Source: Prescottella sp. R16 (GTDB lineage: Bacteria; Actinomycetota; Actinomycetes; Mycobacteriales; Mycobacteriaceae). Taken from it: a stretch of DNA of 64,000 bases. The number at the start of each line of letters is the position of its first letter. The stretch's first letter is position 1. The notes under the pieces were generated by a model that was not told the origin of the DNA, ran no database searches, and worked only from the letters and a program-made list of their open reading frames with translations. The DNA is taken from contig NZ_CP130943.1 in assembly GCF_030656875.1 (NCBI RefSeq), forward strand, positions 4,340,001-4,404,000, read 5' to 3'. A program made the position numbers and the translations under genes. Of the stretch, positions 9,524 through 17,188 are shown piece by piece.

Positions 9524-10037
9524 CCTGGACTCCCGCAGCGCCCTCCAGGTCGAGCAGGAACCGTTTCCGGTCGAGACCGCCCGCGTACCCGGTGAGGGAT
9601 CCGTCGCTGCCGATCACGCGATGACAGGGGACGACGATGCCGATCGGGTTGCGCCCGTTGGCGGCGGCGACGGCCCGGATCGCGGCCGGATTGCCCAGCT
9701 GCTCCGCGAGCTGCAGATACGTCCAGGTGTCACCGTACTCGATGGTGCGCAGCGCCGCCCACACCCGCTGCTGGAACTCGGTTCCCACGGGGGCGAGGGG
9801 CACCGTGAACTCGGTGCGGTCACCGGCGAAGTACTCGGCCAACTGCCTCGTCACGTCGCCGAAACCGTCGCTGTGACGCGGCCCGAACCGCTCCGGATCC
9901 GGCAGGTGCCGTTGCTCGTGCATGTACAGCCCGCACAGGCCGTCGGGGCTGCGGACCAGAGTCAACGGTCCGACCGGGGAGTCGACGACGGTGTGCACGG
10001 TATCCACGGATCCGATACTGCCAGCTACCACCGACAT
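9510..10037 (-). CDS. Methylated-DNA-protein-cysteine methyltransferase (copy 2)
   Basis: A 175-residue O6-alkylguanine repair protein with the active-site Cys in VVPCHRVIGSDGSLTGYAGG and the preceding Asn-hinge segment ANGRNPIGI. Residues 15-80 form the ribonuclease-H-like N-terminal domain. The start is taken as ATG 10037, 1 bp after the Lrp-type gene; GTG 10007 is an alternative. It overlaps the sigma factor start by 14 bp. Together with copy 1 it gives the operon two independent methyl acceptors. Confidence 0.87.
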   Translation of the reverse strand: MSVVAGSIGSVDTVHTVVDSPVGPLTLVRSPDGLCGLYMHEQRHLPDPERFGPRHSDGFGDVTRQLAEYFAGDRTEFTVPLAPVGTEFQQRVWAALRTIEYGDTWTYLQLAEQLGNPAAIRAVAAANGRNPIGIVVPCHRVIGSDGSLTGYAGGLDRKRFLLDLEGAAGVQDGLF

Positions 10038-10038
10038 C

Positions 10039-10521
10039 TCACGGACGGACGGCCTTGGCCAGTAACGGCACCGACCGGTACGAAACCACCTGGGACAGCA
10101 CGACGACGGACACCGACCGGGCGACCGTCGACGAATGGTGCAGGTCGATGAGCAGGGCCTGCAGGTCGTCGTGGGAGGCGGCCGCGACCCGGCACAGTAC
10201 GTCCCCGGCCCCGGTGGTGGCCCACGCCTCGACCACCTCCGGGATCGCCTCGAGTTCCCTGGTGAGCTGGGCGAGCGACCCCTGTGCGATCTCCAGTGTC
10301 ACGAACGCCTGCACCGGGAAACCGGCCGCCCGCAGGTCGATGTCGGGTCCGTAACCGGTGACGATCCCGGCCTCCTCGAGACGGCGCAGCCGGGCCGCCG
10401 CGGTGGCCCGGGCGACCCCGGCCCGGCGCGCGAGTTCGAGCACCCCGATGCGTGGGTCCCGGCGCAGCCGGGCGATCAGGTCGACGTCGAGGCCGTCGAG
10501 CCGGTGCCCCTGCCGGTCCAT
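10039..10521 (-). CDS. Lrp/AsnC-family transcriptional regulator
   Basis: A 160-residue regulator. The N-terminal winged helix-turn-helix includes LDVDLIARLRRDPRIGVLEL followed by ARRAGVARATAAARLRRLEE, and ends in the typical GIVTGYGPDID hinge. A C-terminal RAM (ligand-binding) domain follows from about residue 65. The start is ATG 10521 (MDRQGHRL). An in-frame extension upstream runs into the universal stress gene and is not credible. It lies 1 bp upstream of the MGMT gene, so it is co-transcribed with the alkylation-repair operon, but Lrp proteins usually sense amino acids, so the link is unclear. Confidence 0.8.
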   Translation of the reverse strand: MDRQGHRLDGLDVDLIARLRRDPRIGVLELARRAGVARATAAARLRRLEEAGIVTGYGPDIDLRAAGFPVQAFVTLEIAQGSLAQLTRELEAIPEVVEAWATTGAGDVLCRVAAASHDDLQALLIDLHHSSTVARSVSVVVLSQVVSYRSVPLLAKAVRP

Positions 10522-10534
10522 GTCGGGCCGCCGG

Positions 10535-11386
10535 TCAGGTCGTGACGCGCGTGCGGGCCACGATGACGGGGCATTGCGCGTGGTACAGCAGCGACTGGCA
10601 CGTCGACCCCAGCAACGCGCTCTCGAAACCGCCTCGGCCCCGGTTCCCGACGACCATCGCGCGGGCACCGGAGCTGAGCGCGACGAGATGCTTCGTCGGG
10701 CCGGCCTCCGCGAGCACCGTCTCCACCTGCACCGACGGGAACTTCGCCCCCCACGTCGCGATCAACCGGTCGATCCGGGCACGAGCCTCCTCGTCGGCCT
10801 CCTGGCTGCCGCGACGCCGCCGCGCGTGGACGGCCGTCACATCCGTGTGCCGGATCGCCGCCTCCTGCATCGCGGCACCCACCACGATGTCGGCGCTGTC
10901 CGAATGATCCACTCCGGCGACGACGGGCCCGGACGACGGCGGAACGGGACTGCCGTCCGCACCGCGCACGACCGCGACCGTGCAGTGGGCGTGGTGAGCC
11001 AGGGACAGGGCCGTCGACCCGAGGAGCATGCGGGCGAAGAAACCGGTGCCCACCGAGCCGACGACGAGCAGGCTCGCATGCTCGGACAGATCGACGAATG
11101 CCCGATTCACCCGTCCCCGAAGCAGTTCCACCTCGATGTCGATCGTGTAGTCCTCGATCGTCGCGGCCTCACGGGCAGCCTTCAGCACGTCTCGCCCGAA
11201 CGCTTCCTCTTCCTCGAGATCGTCTGCGACGAAAGGGAAGTCGTTCTCGGTGTCGATGACGTGTACCAGTTTCAGCGGCACCTTGCGGGCATGGGCCTCT
11301 GCGGCCGCCCACTGCACGGCGTGCGTGGACGCCTCGGACCCGTCCACCCCCACGATCACCGGCCGGGACTCGTTCGCTGATGCCAT
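10535..11386 (-). CDS. Tandem-domain universal stress protein
   Basis: A 283-residue UspA-family protein with two Usp domains (about residues 8-145 and 150-280). Each carries the ATP-binding pattern: VIVGVDGSE at the start of domain 1 with GSVGTGFFARMLLGSTALSL, and VAGVDHSD in domain 2 with GNRGRGGFESALLGSTCQSL. Such proteins accumulate during stress or hypoxia in actinobacteria. It ends 13 bp upstream of the Lrp-type start on the same strand, so the repair operon may read through from here. The 62 bp upstream show no recognisable DosR-type box. Confidence 0.85.
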   Translation of the reverse strand: MASANESRPVIVGVDGSEASTHAVQWAAAEAHARKVPLKLVHVIDTENDFPFVADDLEEEEAFGRDVLKAAREAATIEDYTIDIEVELLRGRVNRAFVDLSEHASLLVVGSVGTGFFARMLLGSTALSLAHHAHCTVAVVRGADGSPVPPSSGPVVAGVDHSDSADIVVGAAMQEAAIRHTDVTAVHARRRRGSQEADEEARARIDRLIATWGAKFPSVQVETVLAEAGPTKHLVALSSGARAMVVGNRGRGGFESALLGSTCQSLLYHAQCPVIVARTRVTT

Positions 11387-11448
11387 CGTCTGCTCCGATC
11401 GCCTCGGGTGCTGCGGTACGCGCGCTGTTCAGACTAGCCCCGAATCCG

Positions 11449-12891
11449 TCACGCTTCCTGCGCTCCGGCGAACGTCGTCGTGGCCGCCGTCTCGAGCTCG
11501 TCGAGCCGCATCCGGATCAGGTCGAGGTAGCGGCCGGGGTCGGGCATCGAGGCGGCGTCGGCGACGACGGTGAGGGTGAGCCGGTCCCCGGTCGCCGCGA
11601 CGACGAAATGGCGCAGTCCGTCGCCGTCGACGGGCGGCTGTCCGCCGATCACCGCGACCGCGGGCGCACCGTCGAGGGTGAGACCGTCGACGGTGAACGG
11701 CATGTTGCTCACCATCGTGTGCTGGTAGCGGGGACGGTTCAGATCCCGGTCGTTGTTCTTGTGCCCGTAGGCGATGAGCCGCATCAGCGGCGGCGGCGCG
11801 GTCTGGACGGCAGCGGCCTGCCTGCACACCACCGGATGCGCCGTGCGGACCTTCTCGGACCGGGAGGAGCCGGCGATCCGTGTCAGCCGGGCGACCGGGT
11901 CCGGGACGCCGGTGTGCATGTCGACGCTCATGATCGCGAGCCGGTTGGCCGACGCCTCCTCTTCCACCTGACGCATGGATCGCGGCACCATCGCGACGAG
12001 CGAACCCCGGTGCGGCGTACCCGTGTCGGCGAGATAGTCGGCGAGTCCGGCCCCGACGACCGCGAGCAGGACGTCGTTGACGGTGGCGTCCGGGACCGCC
12101 GCCCGGATGCGACGGATCCGGCTCGTGGAGAAGGTGGTCGACGCCGAAACGGCACGGCCGCTGACCTTGCCGTTGAAGCGGGTCGACGGTTGCTCGGCCT
12201 CTGCCTCCCAGAGCCCGGCATCGCGGGCCTCGTCCACGGCTCCGGCGGCAGCCCGGTTCCCGGGGACAGCGCGGGCGAAACGCAGGAGCTGTCCGGGAAG
12301 ACTGCACAGCGAGTCGACGAGCATGCGGGCGGGAAGCAATGGTGCCGGTGTGACGGGTGTCGCCGGCCGGGCGTCGGCGGTGAAGAGACGACGGGCCAGC
12401 TCCAGCACGGCCAGTCCGTCGCCGGCACTGTGATGGGCCTTGAACACGACGGCCGTCACCCGGTCCGGCAGCCCTTTCAGCCCTTCGAGGCCGGTGAGGA
12501 AGTGCAGTTCCCAGGGCGGCCGGGTGAGATCCATCCGGGCCGACACCAGGCGGTCCACGTGGTCGTGCAGCGCCGCCCAACCCGAGCCTTCGACGGCAGT
12601 GACGTGGACGTGCTCGTCGAGCTCCACCGGAACCGGCTGCCAGTAGGGGTGTTCGAGCCCCAACGGAACCCGCCCGACGGCATGCGTGAACACGCGGTGA
12701 TGACCGAGTCTCTCGGCGGTCCACTTCCTCGCCTGCTCGTGTGTGAACTCGACGTCCGGACGGCCGGTGGCATCGAAGAGGTAGACGGCGAACAGGTGCC
12801 CGGGATGGCCGTCGTGCTCCTGGTAGACGAAATCGGCGTCGCGGGGTGCGAGCGTCACACATCCGGCGGTGAGGCGATCGGACAACGACAT
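11449..12891 (-). CDS. Wax ester synthase/diacylglycerol acyltransferase (WS/DGAT)
   Basis: A 480-residue acyl-CoA-dependent acyltransferase. The catalytic HHxxxDG motif is HHSAGDG (about residue 135), in AVVFKAHHSAGDGLAVLELA. The late family motif near residue 370 reads MVSNMPFTVDGLTL (ND-type loop altered to SNMPF). The family makes storage triacylglycerol or wax esters on lipid bodies. The start is ATG 12891, preceded by GAGGAG at good spacing; a GTG 7 codons earlier lacks this. A 14-bp-stem hairpin and five tiny genes lie directly upstream on the same strand, so the acyltransferase could be read by leakage from them. Other HHxxxDG enzymes act on non-lipid acceptors, so the substrate is open. 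Confidence 0.85.
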   Translation of the reverse strand: MSLSDRLTAGCVTLAPRDADFVYQEHDGHPGHLFAVYLFDATGRPDVEFTHEQARKWTAERLGHHRVFTHAVGRVPLGLEHPYWQPVPVELDEHVHVTAVEGSGWAALHDHVDRLVSARMDLTRPPWELHFLTGLEGLKGLPDRVTAVVFKAHHSAGDGLAVLELARRLFTADARPATPVTPAPLLPARMLVDSLCSLPGQLLRFARAVPGNRAAAGAVDEARDAGLWEAEAEQPSTRFNGKVSGRAVSASTTFSTSRIRRIRAAVPDATVNDVLLAVVGAGLADYLADTGTPHRGSLVAMVPRSMRQVEEEASANRLAIMSVDMHTGVPDPVARLTRIAGSSRSEKVRTAHPVVCRQAAAVQTAPPPLMRLIAYGHKNNDRDLNRPRYQHTMVSNMPFTVDGLTLDGAPAVAVIGGQPPVDGDGLRHFVVAATGDRLTLTVVADAASMPDPGRYLDLIRMRLDELETAATTTFAGAQEA

Positions 12892-12925
12892 GACACTCCT
12901 CGGGTTCGTCACGGAACGAAAGGCA

Positions 12926-12958
12926 ATGGGCTCGAGGACGGATCGTCCTCGAGCCCAT
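12926..12958 (-). terminator. Hairpin between tiny-gene cluster and WS/DGAT gene
   Basis: Perfect 14-bp inverted repeat, ATGGGCTCGAGGAC at 12926-12939 and its complement at 12945-12958, with a 5-nt loop. Read on the minus strand it is followed by TGCCTTTCG, only weakly T-rich. It lies after the last tiny gene and 35 bp before the acyltransferase start, so it could end the peptide transcript or set a lower level of the downstream enzyme. Confidence 0.6.
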
Positions 12959-12986
12959 CGTGTTCACACCACCATGTGTGCGTCGA

Positions 12987-13088
12987 TCACTTCTGCGGCG
13001 GATCCTTCAGGATCTTGCTGCCCGCTCCGGTGAGCCCGGTGACCGCCGAAAGCGATCCGATCATGAAATTGATGTATCTCTGGAACAT
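12987..13088 (-). CDS. Tiny protein E of the peptide cluster (33 aa)
   Basis: A 33-codon gene from ATG 13088 to TGA 12987-12989, preceded by AAAGG 8 nt upstream. It begins MFQRYINFMIGSLSAVTGLT and ends in a charged KDPPQK tail. A single hydrophobic or amphipathic helix is likely for residues 4-20. It follows gene D by only 15 bp. I recognise no family. The support is positional: it is the fifth of five consecutive small frames on one strand, each with a ribosome site and short spacing. It could be a structural surface peptide or a toxin-like peptide. Confidence 0.5.
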   Translation of the reverse strand: MFQRYINFMIGSLSAVTGLTGAGSKILKDPPQK

Positions 13089-13103
13089 CGTCGGTGCCTT
13101 TCG

Positions 13104-13217
13104 TCAGGCCGTGGGCGCGAGAGACAGGGCGTTCAGGAACTTCGTGAACGTCGCCACCAGATCGACAGATCCGAAATTCGAGAGATCGGAACTGTAGGTG
13201 AGAGACAGATCGAGCAT
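13104..13217 (-). CDS. Tiny protein D of the peptide cluster (37 aa)
   Basis: A 37-codon gene from ATG 13217 to TGA 13104-13106, preceded by the strong site GGGAAGGAAG. It begins MLDLSLTYSSDLSNFGSVDL, so it contains the GSVD motif shared with proteins B and C, and continues with an amphipathic stretch ending FLNALSLAPTA. It has few charges and is rich in Ser and Leu. There is no signal peptide. The size, composition and lack of export signal recall PorA/PorH-type outer-membrane peptides of Corynebacterium, but I see no sequence identity that proves it. Confidence 0.55.
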   Translation of the reverse strand: MLDLSLTYSSDLSNFGSVDLVATFTKFLNALSLAPTA

Positions 13218-13235
13218 GCGTTCTTCCTTCCCTGA

Positions 13236-13439
13236 TTACTGGGCGGCGGCAGAGCCGAGAGCGGTGAGGAGCGCGTCGACACTGCCGTTGGCCGCGGTCG
13301 ATCCGGCCGGCCAGACGCCGATGACGCCACCGATGACCTTGAACACGGCATCGACCACGCCCGTGAGTGAATTGATCGGCTCCGTGAGCGATCCGATGTC
13401 GACACTGGTGATGAGGTCGACGAGACTTCCGGTATCCAC
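13236..13439 (-). CDS. Small protein C of the peptide cluster (67 aa)
   Basis: A 67-codon gene from GTG 13439 with AAGGAAGGTG upstream, stopping at 13236. It opens MDTGSLVDLITSVDIGSLTE, has a central hydrophobic stretch (VVDAVFKVIGGVIGVW), then AGSTAANGSVDALLTALGS. It is the largest member and carries the shared GSVD motif near residue 53. It contains one Lys and no Arg or Cys. It begins 36 bp after gene B ends. No known family is recognised; a membrane-inserted amphipathic peptide of the mycolata outer layer is one possibility. Confidence 0.6.
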   Translation of the reverse strand: MDTGSLVDLITSVDIGSLTEPINSLTGVVDAVFKVIGGVIGVWPAGSTAANGSVDALLTALGSAAAQ

Positions 13440-13475
13440 TAGATTGTCACCTTCCTTACGTTTGTCGAGGCCGAG

Positions 13476-13604
13476 CTAGATCGGAACTTGCCAGTCCATG
13501 TCGACCGAACCCTGCAGCGACATGACCGCCAGCTGGCCCATGACCATGTTCACGATTGCCGAGTAAGGGCCGTCGAGGACGTCGGCGAGCGAACTCAATT
13601 TCAT
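13476..13604 (-). CDS. Tiny protein B of the peptide cluster (42 aa)
   Basis: A 42-codon gene from ATG 13604 to TAG 13476-13478. The ribosome site AGAGGAG lies 6 nt upstream, the best in the cluster. It begins MKLSSLADVLDGPYSAIVNM, continues with a Met-rich hydrophobic segment (VMGQLAVMSLQ), then GSVDMDWQVPI. Signal-less, with no Cys and almost no Arg or Lys. The length is close to C. glutamicum PorA (45 residues, established knowledge). Neighbouring genes A and C are 43 and 36 bp away, so the set behaves as one operon. Confidence 0.62.
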   Translation of the reverse strand: MKLSSLADVLDGPYSAIVNMVMGQLAVMSLQGSVDMDWQVPI

Positions 13605-13647
13605 CGGTTACTCCTCTTGTCGGAGAATGCCTTCGGATTGTTCAGGG

Positions 13648-13779
13648 TCAGCTCAGACGAAGCAGGCCGCCCAGCGAGCTATTGGCACCCGTGATTCCCG
13701 GAATAACCGAACCGGAATACAGGTTGGTCAGCAGGCCGTTCAACAGGTCCGCTGCGGCGTCGAGAAACGACACACTCAT
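13648..13779 (-). CDS. Tiny protein A, first gene of the peptide cluster (43 aa)
   Basis: A 43-codon gene from ATG 13779 to TGA 13648-13650, with a weaker site (GTGGGA) upstream. It begins MSVSFLDAAADLLNGLLTNL, an amphipathic or hydrophobic helix, followed by YSGSVIPGITG (a GSV motif like B, C and D) and SSLGGLLRLS. Only one Arg and no Lys. It is the promoter-proximal member; about 530 bp lie between it and the divergent hpd gene. No family is recognised. Confidence 0.57.
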   Translation of the reverse strand: MSVSFLDAAADLLNGLLTNLYSGSVIPGITGANSSLGGLLRLS

Positions 13780-15498
<1,719 letters not shown>

Positions 15499-15519
15499 CC
15501 GCGCCGCTCCTTCTGCGTG

Positions 15520-16332
15520 TCAGATGGACGTGATGCCCAGGTCCAGCGACATCTGCGAGCCGGTGACGGTACGGGACCGGTCGCTGGCCAGGTACAGCAC
15601 GATCTCGGAGACGTCGTCGACGCTGCACTTGCTGAGCCCGGCGAGCGGCCACTTGTAGTTGTCGATGTAGCGCGGGTACTGCGCCAGGATCTTTCCGACG
15701 TTGGTGTCCTGACCCATCGGGGTGTCCACCGCGCCCGGATGGATGGAGTTGACGCGAATACCGAACTCGCCCAACTCGATCGCCGCGGTCTTCGTCAGAC
15801 CCACCAGGCCGTGCTTGGCGGAGGTGTAGTTCGACGTGCCCGGGCTGGCCTTGATGCCGGCCGCCGAGCTGACGACGATGATCGAGCCGCCGCGGCCGCC
15901 GTCGATCATTGCGGGTGCCGCGGCCTTGAGGGTGCGCCACACACCGTTGAGGTTGATGTCGATCATCGTCGTCCACTGGTCTTCGGGCATCTCCCAGAAG
16001 CGGTTCCAGGTGGAGATGCCGGCGTTGGCGACCACGATGTCGAGGCGTCCGAAGCGTTCGACGCCGGTGTCGACGGCGGCCTGCAGTGCCGCCTGGTCGC
16101 GGACGTCGCCGATCGCGGTGACGATCTCGCGGCCCTCGGCGCGCACCAGGCGGGCGGTCTCCTCGAGATCCTCGGGGGTGGCGGCCGGGTAGCCGACATC
16201 GTCGGAGACCGGGGCGCACACGTCGAGCGCGATGATGTCCGCGCCTTCACGGGCGAACCGGACCGCATGGTTGCGTCCCTGTCCCCGTGCCGCACCCGTG
16301 ATGAAGGCAACCTTGTTCTCGAGCAGTCCCAT
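15520..16332 (-). CDS. Mycofactocin-type short-chain dehydrogenase/reductase
   Basis: A 270-residue SDR. It has the NAD-binding motif TGAARGQG, NAG in VVANAGIST, catalytic Ser in SSAAG and the YxxxK pair in NYTSAKHGL. The segment LDVCAPVSDDVGYPAATPED followed by LEETARLVRAEGREI is the insertion typical of mycofactocin-coupled SDRs (carveol dehydrogenase group), where the nicotinamide stays tightly bound and electrons pass to mycofactocin. It would oxidise a secondary alcohol. The start is ATG 16332 behind GGAGG; the upstream frame extension runs into the tRNA. It is convergent with hpd. Confidence 0.82.
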   Translation of the reverse strand: MGLLENKVAFITGAARGQGRNHAVRFAREGADIIALDVCAPVSDDVGYPAATPEDLEETARLVRAEGREIVTAIGDVRDQAALQAAVDTGVERFGRLDIVVANAGISTWNRFWEMPEDQWTTMIDINLNGVWRTLKAAAPAMIDGGRGGSIIVVSSAAGIKASPGTSNYTSAKHGLVGLTKTAAIELGEFGIRVNSIHPGAVDTPMGQDTNVGKILAQYPRYIDNYKWPLAGLSKCSVDDVSEIVLYLASDRSRTVTGSQMSLDLGITSI

Positions 16333-16474
16333 GTTCGATCCTCCGCGTTCCGTCGTCGTACCGTGTACTCGCAGGCTAGGACGGCTCCGGACGTGCACGA
16401 ACCACGACTTCCGATCACCGGGACCGCCTCGATGCGGTGAATCCGCCCGTGTCGTGTACTGTGGGAAACACCGA

Positions 16475-16551
16475 CGCGGGGTGGAGCAGCTCGGTAGCTC
16501 GCTGGGCTCATAACCCAGAGGTCGCAGGTTCAAATCCTGTCCCCGCTACCA
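16475..16551 (+). tRNA. Initiator tRNA-fMet (CAT)
   Basis: A 77-nt tRNA with encoded CCA. The anticodon CAT is at 16509-16511. The anticodon stem has three consecutive G-C pairs (GGG/CCC), and the first acceptor position is a mismatch (C1 with T72), both hallmarks of bacterial initiator tRNA. The 5' half starts CGCGGGGTGGAGCAG, which is the conserved fMet sequence. Confidence 0.97.
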
Positions 16552-16554
16552 CCG

Positions 16555-16590
16555 AAGAACCCGGTATCGCAGCTGCGATACCGGGTTCTT
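16555..16590 (+). terminator. Terminator after tRNA-fMet
   Basis: A perfect 36-bp palindrome, with arms beginning AAGAACCCGGTATCGCAG, starts 3 bp after the tRNA CCA end. The bases TTCTTCTCTG at its 3' side give a modest U-rich tail. It reads in both directions and fits a tRNA transcription terminator. Confidence 0.8.
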
Positions 16591-16714
16591 CTCTGTCCGG
16601 GGCTCGTTCCGGAGCGTTCCAAGGGCTCCGTCGATGCCCGTCCTGCGCGCACGTTGACGGCCTGCCCACGGACGGTGCCTCCCTTCGCCCCGTCTCGAGC
16701 GTTAGATTGCTTGT

Positions 16715-17188
16715 ATGGCGGACCGCGATCGGGACACGCTCGGCAAGCCCCGTAATGCCCGTCCCCGGGATCGGTTGGGGCGACCGTTGGCGTGGGGTGA
16801 GGAGGGTTTCCCGACGATGCCCGACGATCTGGATCTGGCGCCCGGTGCGGCGATCACGGAGGCGCAGCGGTTGCTGGATCACGAGTTGCCGTTCCATGCG
16901 CACGAGGTGCTCGAGGCGGCGTGGAAGAAGGCGCCGCACGAGGAGCGGGGCCTGTGGCAGGGGCTGGCGCAGTTGGCGGTTGCGGTGACGCATCTGTTGC
17001 GCGGCAATCCGGCGGGCGCAGTGTCGTTGCTGCGGCAGGGCCGGCATCGCATCGTCCCGTTCGAGGTGGATCCTCCGCACGCCCTCGATGTCACCGGCCT
17101 GGTGGCGTGGGCCGACCATCTGATCGCCGAACTGGATGCGGGTGTTCCCCCGGAGACGGTGCCGGTGCCTCGACTGCGGATGCCGTGA
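16715..17188 (+). CDS. DUF309 domain protein
   Basis: A 157-residue protein. The core (about 45-120) carries the DUF309 pattern: LLDHELPFHAHEVLEAAWKK, then ERGLWQGLAQLAVAVTHLLR. It is an all-helical fold with conserved His and Trp residues, of unknown biochemical role. Its N-terminus is short and basic. The ATG of the next gene overlaps its stop (TGATG), so translation is coupled to the LON-domain protein. Function cannot be stated. Confidence 0.75.
   Translation: MADRDRDTLGKPRNARPRDRLGRPLAWGEEGFPTMPDDLDLAPGAAITEAQRLLDHELPFHAHEVLEAAWKKAPHEERGLWQGLAQLAVAVTHLLRGNPAGAVSLLRQGRHRIVPFEVDPPHALDVTGLVAWADHLIAELDAGVPPETVPVPRLRMP

What the first reader, a model, noticed from the sequence alone, without database searches (positions are those of the whole stretch)
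12987..13779. Cluster of five tiny genes (33-67 codons) upstream of a WS/DGAT acyltransferase
Seen directly: five consecutive minus-strand frames (43, 42, 67, 37, 33 aa), each with its own start, four with good Shine-Dalgarno sequences, gaps of 15-43 bp, and a strong hairpin after the last. All lack signal peptides and are poor in charge and rich in Ser, Gly and Leu. Established knowledge: mycolata have signal-less channel peptides of this size (PorA 45 aa, PorH 57 aa in Corynebacterium) that are O-acylated. Inference: this may be an undescribed outer-membrane or secreted peptide system. A toxin, bacteriocin or phenol-soluble-modulin-like set is an alternative.
Basis: partly seen in the sequence, partly recalled or inferred. 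Interest (0 to 1): 0.85.

Follow-up and report, generated by a model that had tools for sequence, protein, structure and literature searches.

The report
Five-peptide envelope operon beside an acyltransferase
Five tiny protein genes without export signals keep one order in the 23 bacterial genomes where they were found, 19 of them with the same kind of lipid-attaching enzyme alongside; they likely make lipid-tagged outer-membrane peptides that work like the small Corynebacterium porins, which would carry that kind of channel into Rhodococcus relatives.

Summary
The five small genes are real: all five frames stand in the same order and on one strand in 23 of 23 loci from three genera, and six species pairs give dN/dS 0.09-0.29. 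The window lies in the genus Prescottella. In 19 of 23 loci a WS/DGAT acyltransferase follows. In the Rhodococcus erythropolis group the set lies beside groEL2 in 8 of 8 loci with groEL2 in view, in five genomes between groEL2 and ppk2, the interval that holds porH-porA in Corynebacterium. Other arrays of signal-less Gly-Ser peptides stand beside groEL2 in 10 of 10 Prescottella genomes examined and beside a second WS/DGAT branch, reaching three unnamed genera. One WS/DGAT clade holds 38 of 40 rows next to such peptides; 0 of 15 outside rows. The peptides miss the PorA/PorH family models; only D shows a weak profile match to PorA. I infer lipidated mycomembrane peptides or channel subunits, perhaps acylated by the linked enzyme. 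Localisation, channel activity and acylation are untested.

The parts
13648..13779 (-). Peptide A, 43 aa, ATG; consensus MSVxFLxATAxLLxxLLxxVxSGSxxPG...GSL...S; invariant GS at 23-24
   Evidence: HMM hit in 23 of 23 loci; helix 3-24 in a low-confidence model (mean pLDDT 65)
13476..13604 (-). Peptide B, 42 aa, ATG; consensus MxLGSxAxxL...SVD; invariant Ser 5 and Ser 33
13236..13439 (-). Peptide C, 67 aa, GTG start; consensus MDTGSLVDLxTSVD...LWPAGS...
   Evidence: GTG start in 19 of 19 loci where the script listed C; low-confidence all-helix model (mean pLDDT 60)
13104..13217 (-). Peptide D, 37 aa, ATG; consensus MFDLSLTYSSDLVxFGSVDLVGTFAKYLNALS; best conserved; weak profile match to PorA
12987..13088 (-). 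Peptide E, 33 aa, ATG; consensus MLQxYxxxMIxxxxxxxGLTxxGSKxLxNPx; net charge +3
12925..12959 (-). Strong hairpin between E and the WS/DGAT gene, without a U run; possible attenuator or processing element
   Evidence: hairpins of 34 nt or more are predicted after E in 12 of 19 loci with a WS/DGAT (no shuffle control there)
11449..12891 (-). WS/DGAT-family O-acyltransferase, 480 aa, HHSAGDG motif, ATG start
   Evidence: Pfam PF03007 and PF06974; related to solved WS/DGAT 6CHJ; clade linked to peptide arrays
13780..14000 (-). Upstream leader/promoter stretch with conserved blocks, including GTGTGCTGC(C/T)(C/T)GA
   Evidence: alignment of 8 Prescottella sequences (A gene included in the aligned stretch)

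Best explanation
The cluster encodes five conserved signal-less Gly/Ser-rich peptides followed by a WS/DGAT acyltransferase gene, and it is likely a PorA/PorH-type system whose lipidated helical peptides would insert into the mycolate outer membrane as channel or structural subunits. Shown: the five frames keep order and strand in 23 of 23 loci and evolve under purifying selection; the WS/DGAT is next to them in 19 of 23. Shown: the WS/DGATs belong to one clade whose examined members nearly always stand beside such peptides. Shown: in the R. erythropolis group and two Prescottella genomes the set lies beside groEL2, the seat of porH-porA in Corynebacterium. Inferred: the peptides leave the cell by the same unknown signal-less route as PorA/PorH, assemble with one another in the mycomembrane, and carry an acyl chain on a conserved Ser. 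Inferred: the linked WS/DGAT attaches that chain from acyl-CoA, or makes the lipid with which the peptides assemble. The hairpin after E may hold the enzyme at a lower level than the peptides.
For: Conservation of all five frames in order and dN/dS. WS/DGAT downstream in 19 of 23 loci. WS/DGAT clade: 38 of 40 rows by peptides, 0 of 15 outside; Prescottella loci 10 of 12 and 10 of 10 against 0 of 14. groEL2 beside the set in 8 of 8 R. erythropolis-group loci in view, in five genomes with ppk2 on the far side, and in two Prescottella genomes. PorH/PorA-type frames between groEL2 and ppk2 in 6 of 8 Corynebacterium loci read; the literature used that position to find porins that sequence search missed (PMC3792995, PMC5944148, passages). 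Size, lack of a signal sequence and predicted helices match PorA/PorH as described there. D-PorA profile score above all 150 class-preserving shuffles. Conserved Ser in GS context.
Against: No NCBIfam PorA/PorH hit (PorH model 0 of 14 Prescottella genomes). D-PorA is the best of ten tests, probability 50% one way and 36% the other; the other nine are weak. Helical amphipathicity beats shuffles clearly only for C (0.002) and barely for A (0.049), not for B, D or E. Models are low-confidence. The WS/DGAT is missing or broken in 4 of 23 loci. In the window the set is not near groEL2, and ppk2 was not seen near groEL2 in Prescottella. In four other genera groEL2 and ppk2 are neighbours without such peptides by my filter or listing, and 2 of 8 Corynebacterium loci lack PorH/PorA-type frames there. 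No direct evidence for envelope location, export, acylation or channels.
Confidence: 0.5

Rival explanations
1. Lipid-inclusion coat: the peptides bind the surface of triacylglycerol or wax-ester inclusions made by the adjacent WS/DGAT and control them, as phasins or oleosins do; they never leave the cell.
For: Tight link to a WS/DGAT clade; no export signal; helical peptides; amphipathic helices are proposed to bind inclusions (PMC10699116, passages).
Against: The Prescottella WS/DGATs outside the clade that I examined have no peptides (14 loci), whereas a storage-lipid coat should serve them too; the groEL2-ppk2 position is the porin position; peptides persist in 4 of 23 loci without an intact WS/DGAT; X1-X3 stand by groEL2 without one.
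Confidence: 0.2
2. Secreted multi-peptide surfactant, leaderless bacteriocin or PSM-like set acting on other cells or surfaces.
For: Signal-less short peptides in a multi-gene set; at least four different C variants are named from Prescottella equi, as might be expected of a diversifying exported factor.
Against: No ABC transporter or immunity family among the neighbours scanned; four of five peptides are anionic; present in 12 of 14 species of the genus; the WS/DGAT and groEL2 links are unexplained. An S9 peptidase lies near the cluster in L035 and a homologue in L037.
Confidence: 0.12
3. Cytoplasmic helpers of the WS/DGAT or of lipid metabolism: the peptides bind and regulate the enzyme or the inner membrane rather than the outer membrane.
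For: Clade-specific enzyme linkage.
Against: Sets without an intact enzyme; different peptide arrays for sister enzymes; groEL2 position.
Confidence: 0.12
4. Chance open frames in a non-coding stretch.
For: Very short frames and no protein-level evidence.
Against: Frames, order and key residues kept in 23 of 23 loci, dN/dS 0.09-0.29, no filter hit elsewhere in 64 kb.
Confidence: 0.01

Closest known systems
PorH/PorA cell-wall channels of Corynebacterium (NCBIfam NF033938, NF033937, NF033925), including PorACj and PorACur
   Same: Peptides of about 40-60 aa, no signal sequence, helical, Ser-bearing, in small operons beside groEL2 with ppk2 beyond (PMC3792995, PMC5944148, passages; own loci).
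   Different: Five peptides instead of one or two; a WS/DGAT follows; no family-model hit; the window's copy sits elsewhere in the chromosome; no channel data.
ProtX of C. glutamicum and other O-mycoloylated proteins
   Same: Small Ser-bearing envelope peptide, acylated on Ser; sites lie among small residues without a strict consensus (PMC5310785, PMC11066868, passages).
   Different: Acylated outside the cell by a mycoloyltransferase; no WS/DGAT involved; acylation of the present peptides is untested.
WS/DGAT enzymes (PF03007/PF06974; solved structure 6CHJ)
   Same: The linked enzyme has both domains and the HHxxxDG motif.
   Different: Its clade stands by arrays of tiny peptides; it falls below the TIGR02946 cut-off (283.8 of 309.95 bits); substrate unknown.
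MspA-type porins of Rhodococcus (PorARc, PorARr, PorBRr)
   Same: Outer-membrane channels of the same group of bacteria.
   Different: Proteins of roughly 200-270 aa made with signal peptides (PMC9233653, passages).

Membership tests
PorA/PorH porin families | Match to NCBIfam PorA (NF033925) or PorH (NF033938, NF033937) models | tested here: not met
   Window's five peptides, 20 A members, 22 D members: no hit at E <= 1; PorH model 0 of 14 genomes
PorA/PorH porin families | Distant sequence homology | tested here: inconclusive
   D-PorA 20.8, 0 of 150 shuffles, reversed 8.0; D-PorH and B-PorH 3 of 150 each; the other seven pairs weaker
PorA/PorH porin families | Gene position beside groEL2 with ppk2 beyond | tested here: inconclusive
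   Met in five R. erythropolis-group genomes; beside groEL2 on its other side in three more; beside groEL2 without ppk2 in two Prescottella; not met in the window
PorA/PorH porin families | Short peptide whose start Met opens the mature protein, no signal sequence | tested here: met
   Sequences; judged by eye, no signal-peptide program was run
PorA/PorH porin families | Channel formation in lipid bilayers | not testable with these tools
   needs purified peptide
PorA/PorH porin families | O-mycoloylation of Ser | not testable with these tools
   conserved Ser only
WS/DGAT | PF03007 and PF06974 above cut-off | tested here: met
   119.5 and 42.5 bits against 23.6 and 20.7
WS/DGAT | HHxxxDG motif | tested here: met
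   HHSAGDG in the window's enzyme and a form of it in all 40 clade rows
WS/DGAT | TIGR02946 cut-off | tested here: not met
   283.8 bits, cut-off 309.95; the domain membership stands, the subfamily does not
WS/DGAT | Acyl-CoA dependent wax-ester or triacylglycerol synthesis | not testable with these tools
   no assay
Leaderless bacteriocin or PSM-like set | Adjacent transporter or immunity gene | tested here: inconclusive
   none among 3 window neighbours and 20 selected long ORFs of six other loci; not every neighbour was scanned

The most novel reading that the evidence does not exclude
A large, unannotated superfamily of ribosomal lipopeptides exists across Rhodococcus, Prescottella and related mycolate bacteria: arrays of signal-less Gly-Ser microproteins, many served by their own enzyme of one WS/DGAT clade. 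That enzyme would be a dedicated peptide serine O-acyltransferase, not a storage-lipid synthase; the lipid-tagged peptides would build channels or scaffolds in the mycomembrane, and Corynebacterium PorA/PorH would be one lineage of this world that uses extracellular mycoloylation instead.
Probability: 0.27. Interest if true: 0.95.

Novelty: new variant of a known kind. Interest (0 to 1): 0.8.

Why it matters
PorA/PorH of Corynebacterium are exported without a signal by an unidentified mechanism (PMC3792995, passages), and such small helical channel peptides have been contrasted with the larger MspA-type porins of other mycolata (PMC5944148, passages). PorA/PorH-like peptide sets at the equivalent locus in rhodococci would give a comparative handle on that open question. 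The clade-wide link to WS/DGAT suggests a testable new job for an enzyme family known for storage lipids. Proteins this small are easily missed: where a source names the relatives found here, nearly all are 'hypothetical' or 'uncharacterized'.

Tried and rejected
Rfam search of 10000-17000: only a tRNA. Plasmid DNA search: no match. Pfam and NCBIfam: nothing convincing for the five peptides. PDB profile search with C: only chance-level hits to a cation transporter. Two D-profile hits in genus g9 proved to be pieces of longer unrelated frames and were dropped from the count. Weak hits 6-9 kb from GroEL2 in Prescottella were not counted. The column-shuffle null was judged too lenient, because it destroys helical periodicity, and was replaced by reversed and class-preserving nulls, under which only D-PorA stands out; PorH against PorA itself scores 20.7 forward and 18.7 reversed, so these nulls are not tight. 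All-against-all comparison of the peptide families puts four pairs (F1-F6, F5-F7, F1-F2, F2-F7) above every reversed score; D-X2 (23.0) stays below the highest reversed score (23.6), so one superfamily for all is not claimed as shown. Low-confidence AlphaFold models were not taken to fold search. One L028-L038 filter hit outside any array (L037, 44 aa) is counted as spurious.

Full report
What is there. One search confirms five consecutive minus-strand frames of 43, 42, 67, 37 and 33 aa (A to E in order of translation) at 13779-12987, with gaps of 43, 36, 18 and 15 bp. A 16-pair hairpin follows E, then a WS/DGAT acyltransferase (11449-12891). A divergent HPPD-like dioxygenase lies upstream and a universal stress protein gene downstream. 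The genome has 4.57 Mb; its genus is Prescottella, the R. equi group, by the names of same-genus genomes.

The frames are genes. C is found in 12 of 14 genomes of the genus. These 12, nine genomes of genus g23 and two of genus g13 carry A, B, C, D and E in the same order and on one strand: 23 of 23 loci. g23 includes the R. erythropolis group by named proteins and contig lengths. Among 401 genomes of the family the A profile finds 23, the C profile 22 and the D profile 25, two of the last spurious. dN/dS by a simple counting method is 0.09-0.29 over the joined frames in six species pairs, not all independent; single frames are noisier. A has 43 aa in all 12 Prescottella members; the GTG start of C is kept in 19 of 19 loci where the script listed C. 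A and E have an invariant GS (20 and 19 rows); D keeps FGS in 20 of 22 rows; B and C have invariant Ser.

The acyltransferase belongs to the pattern. A WS/DGAT is found with the set in 19 of 23 loci and not as an intact gene in L034, L037, L076 and L131 (in L037 the match contains stops). Among 14 Prescottella genomes, WS/DGATs of 48% identity or more to the window's enzyme, itself included, have the five peptides in 10 of 12 loci. The exceptions L077 and L078 belong to genomes whose peptide cluster lies by groEL2. WS/DGATs of about 40% identity have a different array of small Gly-Ser peptides in 10 of 10 loci. Of the remaining 58 match rows, some of them fragments, I read 14 loci with 16 genes: none has such peptides by the filter. 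The filter misses weak Shine-Dalgarno sites, so its absences are not absolute. In a tree of 55 WS/DGAT rows one clade (support 100/97) holds 40 rows, 38 labelled as standing by peptides, and 0 of 15 outside rows. I gave the label per locus, one gene appears twice, and near relatives are not independent. The HHxxxDG motif is intact in all 40. The window's own genome lacks the 40% branch and its F1 peptide.

A profile of F1, one peptide of that second array, matches 37 of 301 genomes in 5 of 31 genera. F1- or F2-type peptides show in 20 of 20, both in 19 by the filter; a WS/DGAT of 35-42% identity, partial at a contig end in L252, lies within about 0.2-2.3 kb in 18 of 20, and none is in view in L250 and L251.

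Position. In Corynebacterium porH and porA lie between groEL2 and ppk2, and channel genes of C. jeikeium and C. urealyticum were found by that position where sequence search had failed (passages of PMC3792995, and PMC5944148). Of eight loci from genus g3 (Corynebacterium, inferred from the PorH model), six show PorH/PorA-type frames in that interval by my reading and two, L189 and L190, do not. In g23 GroEL2 is in view in 8 of 9 loci and in all 8 the five-peptide set is within about 1.5-3.5 kb of it; in L069 the contig ends first. In L067 the order is groEL2, an orphan gene, A-E, WS/DGAT, second WS/DGAT, ppk2, all on one strand; L068, L072 and L073 share this plan. In G185 (L075, L196) the set lies in the same interval but inverted. 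In L070, L071 and L074 it lies on the other side of groEL2, while the second WS/DGAT and ppk2 follow groEL2. In two Prescottella genomes the set lies 6-8 kb downstream of groEL2, and ppk2 was not seen there. In the window and eight other Prescottella loci it lies between the dioxygenase and the stress-protein gene, which I read as a derived place. Against a general rule: in L158, L169, L171 and L180 (four other genera) groEL2 and ppk2 are neighbours without a comparable array, and the g13 sets are not near groEL2.

A wider family. Near groEL2, 10 of 10 Prescottella genomes read (of 14), including two without the five-peptide set, carry three other conserved signal-less peptides, X1, X2 and X3. 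The R. erythropolis group carries F1/F2-type peptides between the second WS/DGAT and ppk2 (L193, L194, L195, L072). The filter behind these counts finds 4 peptides in the 64-kb window, all in the cluster, and 8 in 99 kb of flanks of L028-L038, 7 of which are X peptides near groEL2.

Relation to PorA/PorH. By family models the peptides are not members. By profile comparison D resembles PorA (score 20.8, probability 50% one way and 36% the other, 0 of 150 class-preserving shuffles as high, reversed 8.0), but this is the best of ten tests. I therefore say that it works like PorA/PorH and that its relatives sit where PorA/PorH sit, not that it is PorA/PorH. Helix models are of low confidence, and amphipathicity beats shuffles for C and, barely, A only.

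Mechanism. Shown: conserved peptides, purifying selection, linkage to one WS/DGAT clade, linkage to groEL2 and, in part, ppk2. Inferred: envelope location, assembly into channels or a scaffold, Ser acylation, and the WS/DGAT as the acylating enzyme. O-mycoloylation occurs at Ser amid small residues without a strict consensus (passages of PMC11066868), so the GS motifs are compatible but not diagnostic. The main rival is a lipid-inclusion coat: it explains the WS/DGAT link, but not the groEL2-ppk2 position, nor the loci where peptides persist without an intact enzyme.

Literature. Nine full-text searches of the open library listed no paper whose title or abstract start describes these peptides or this link; four of the lists were cut, and the library lacks most subscription journals. 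Six papers were read as passages only. That WS/DGATs are storage-lipid enzymes and that their usual donor is acyl-CoA is recalled knowledge.

Noticed in passing
L139 (own genome G000:C1:3783000-3797000) and L140-L148: Three further conserved signal-less Gly/Ser peptides (X1 35-47 aa; X2 26-27 aa in 1-3 copies; X3 49-52 aa) stand downstream of groEL2 in 10 of 10 Prescottella genomes read.
   Followed up: partly
L235-L254: A conserved pair of tiny MGS... peptides (F1/F2) beside a WS/DGAT in unnamed genera g21, g22 and g25.
   Followed up: partly
P0001, P0015, P0020, P0030: At least four different forms of peptide C are named from Prescottella equi / Rhodococcus hoagii, so strains of one species seem to carry different versions.
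   Followed up: no
L037:6004-7118: The WS/DGAT beside the groEL2-linked peptide set of this genome seems interrupted by stops, while an open WS/DGAT of 56% identity without peptides stands at the dioxygenase/stress-protein locus, L077.
   Followed up: partly
L067:3091-3789; L035:6500-7240; L037:3256-4182; L071:1062-1775: An orphan protein of about 230-310 aa without a Pfam hit over its cut-off recurs near the peptide sets.
   Followed up: no
window 14090-14103: Perfect palindrome TGGACAATTGTCCA upstream of the divergent HPPD-like gene, a possible regulator site.
   Followed up: no
window 13780-14000: Conserved blocks upstream of peptide A in eight Prescottella sequences, among them GTGTGCTGC(C/T)(C/T)GA.
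   Followed up: no
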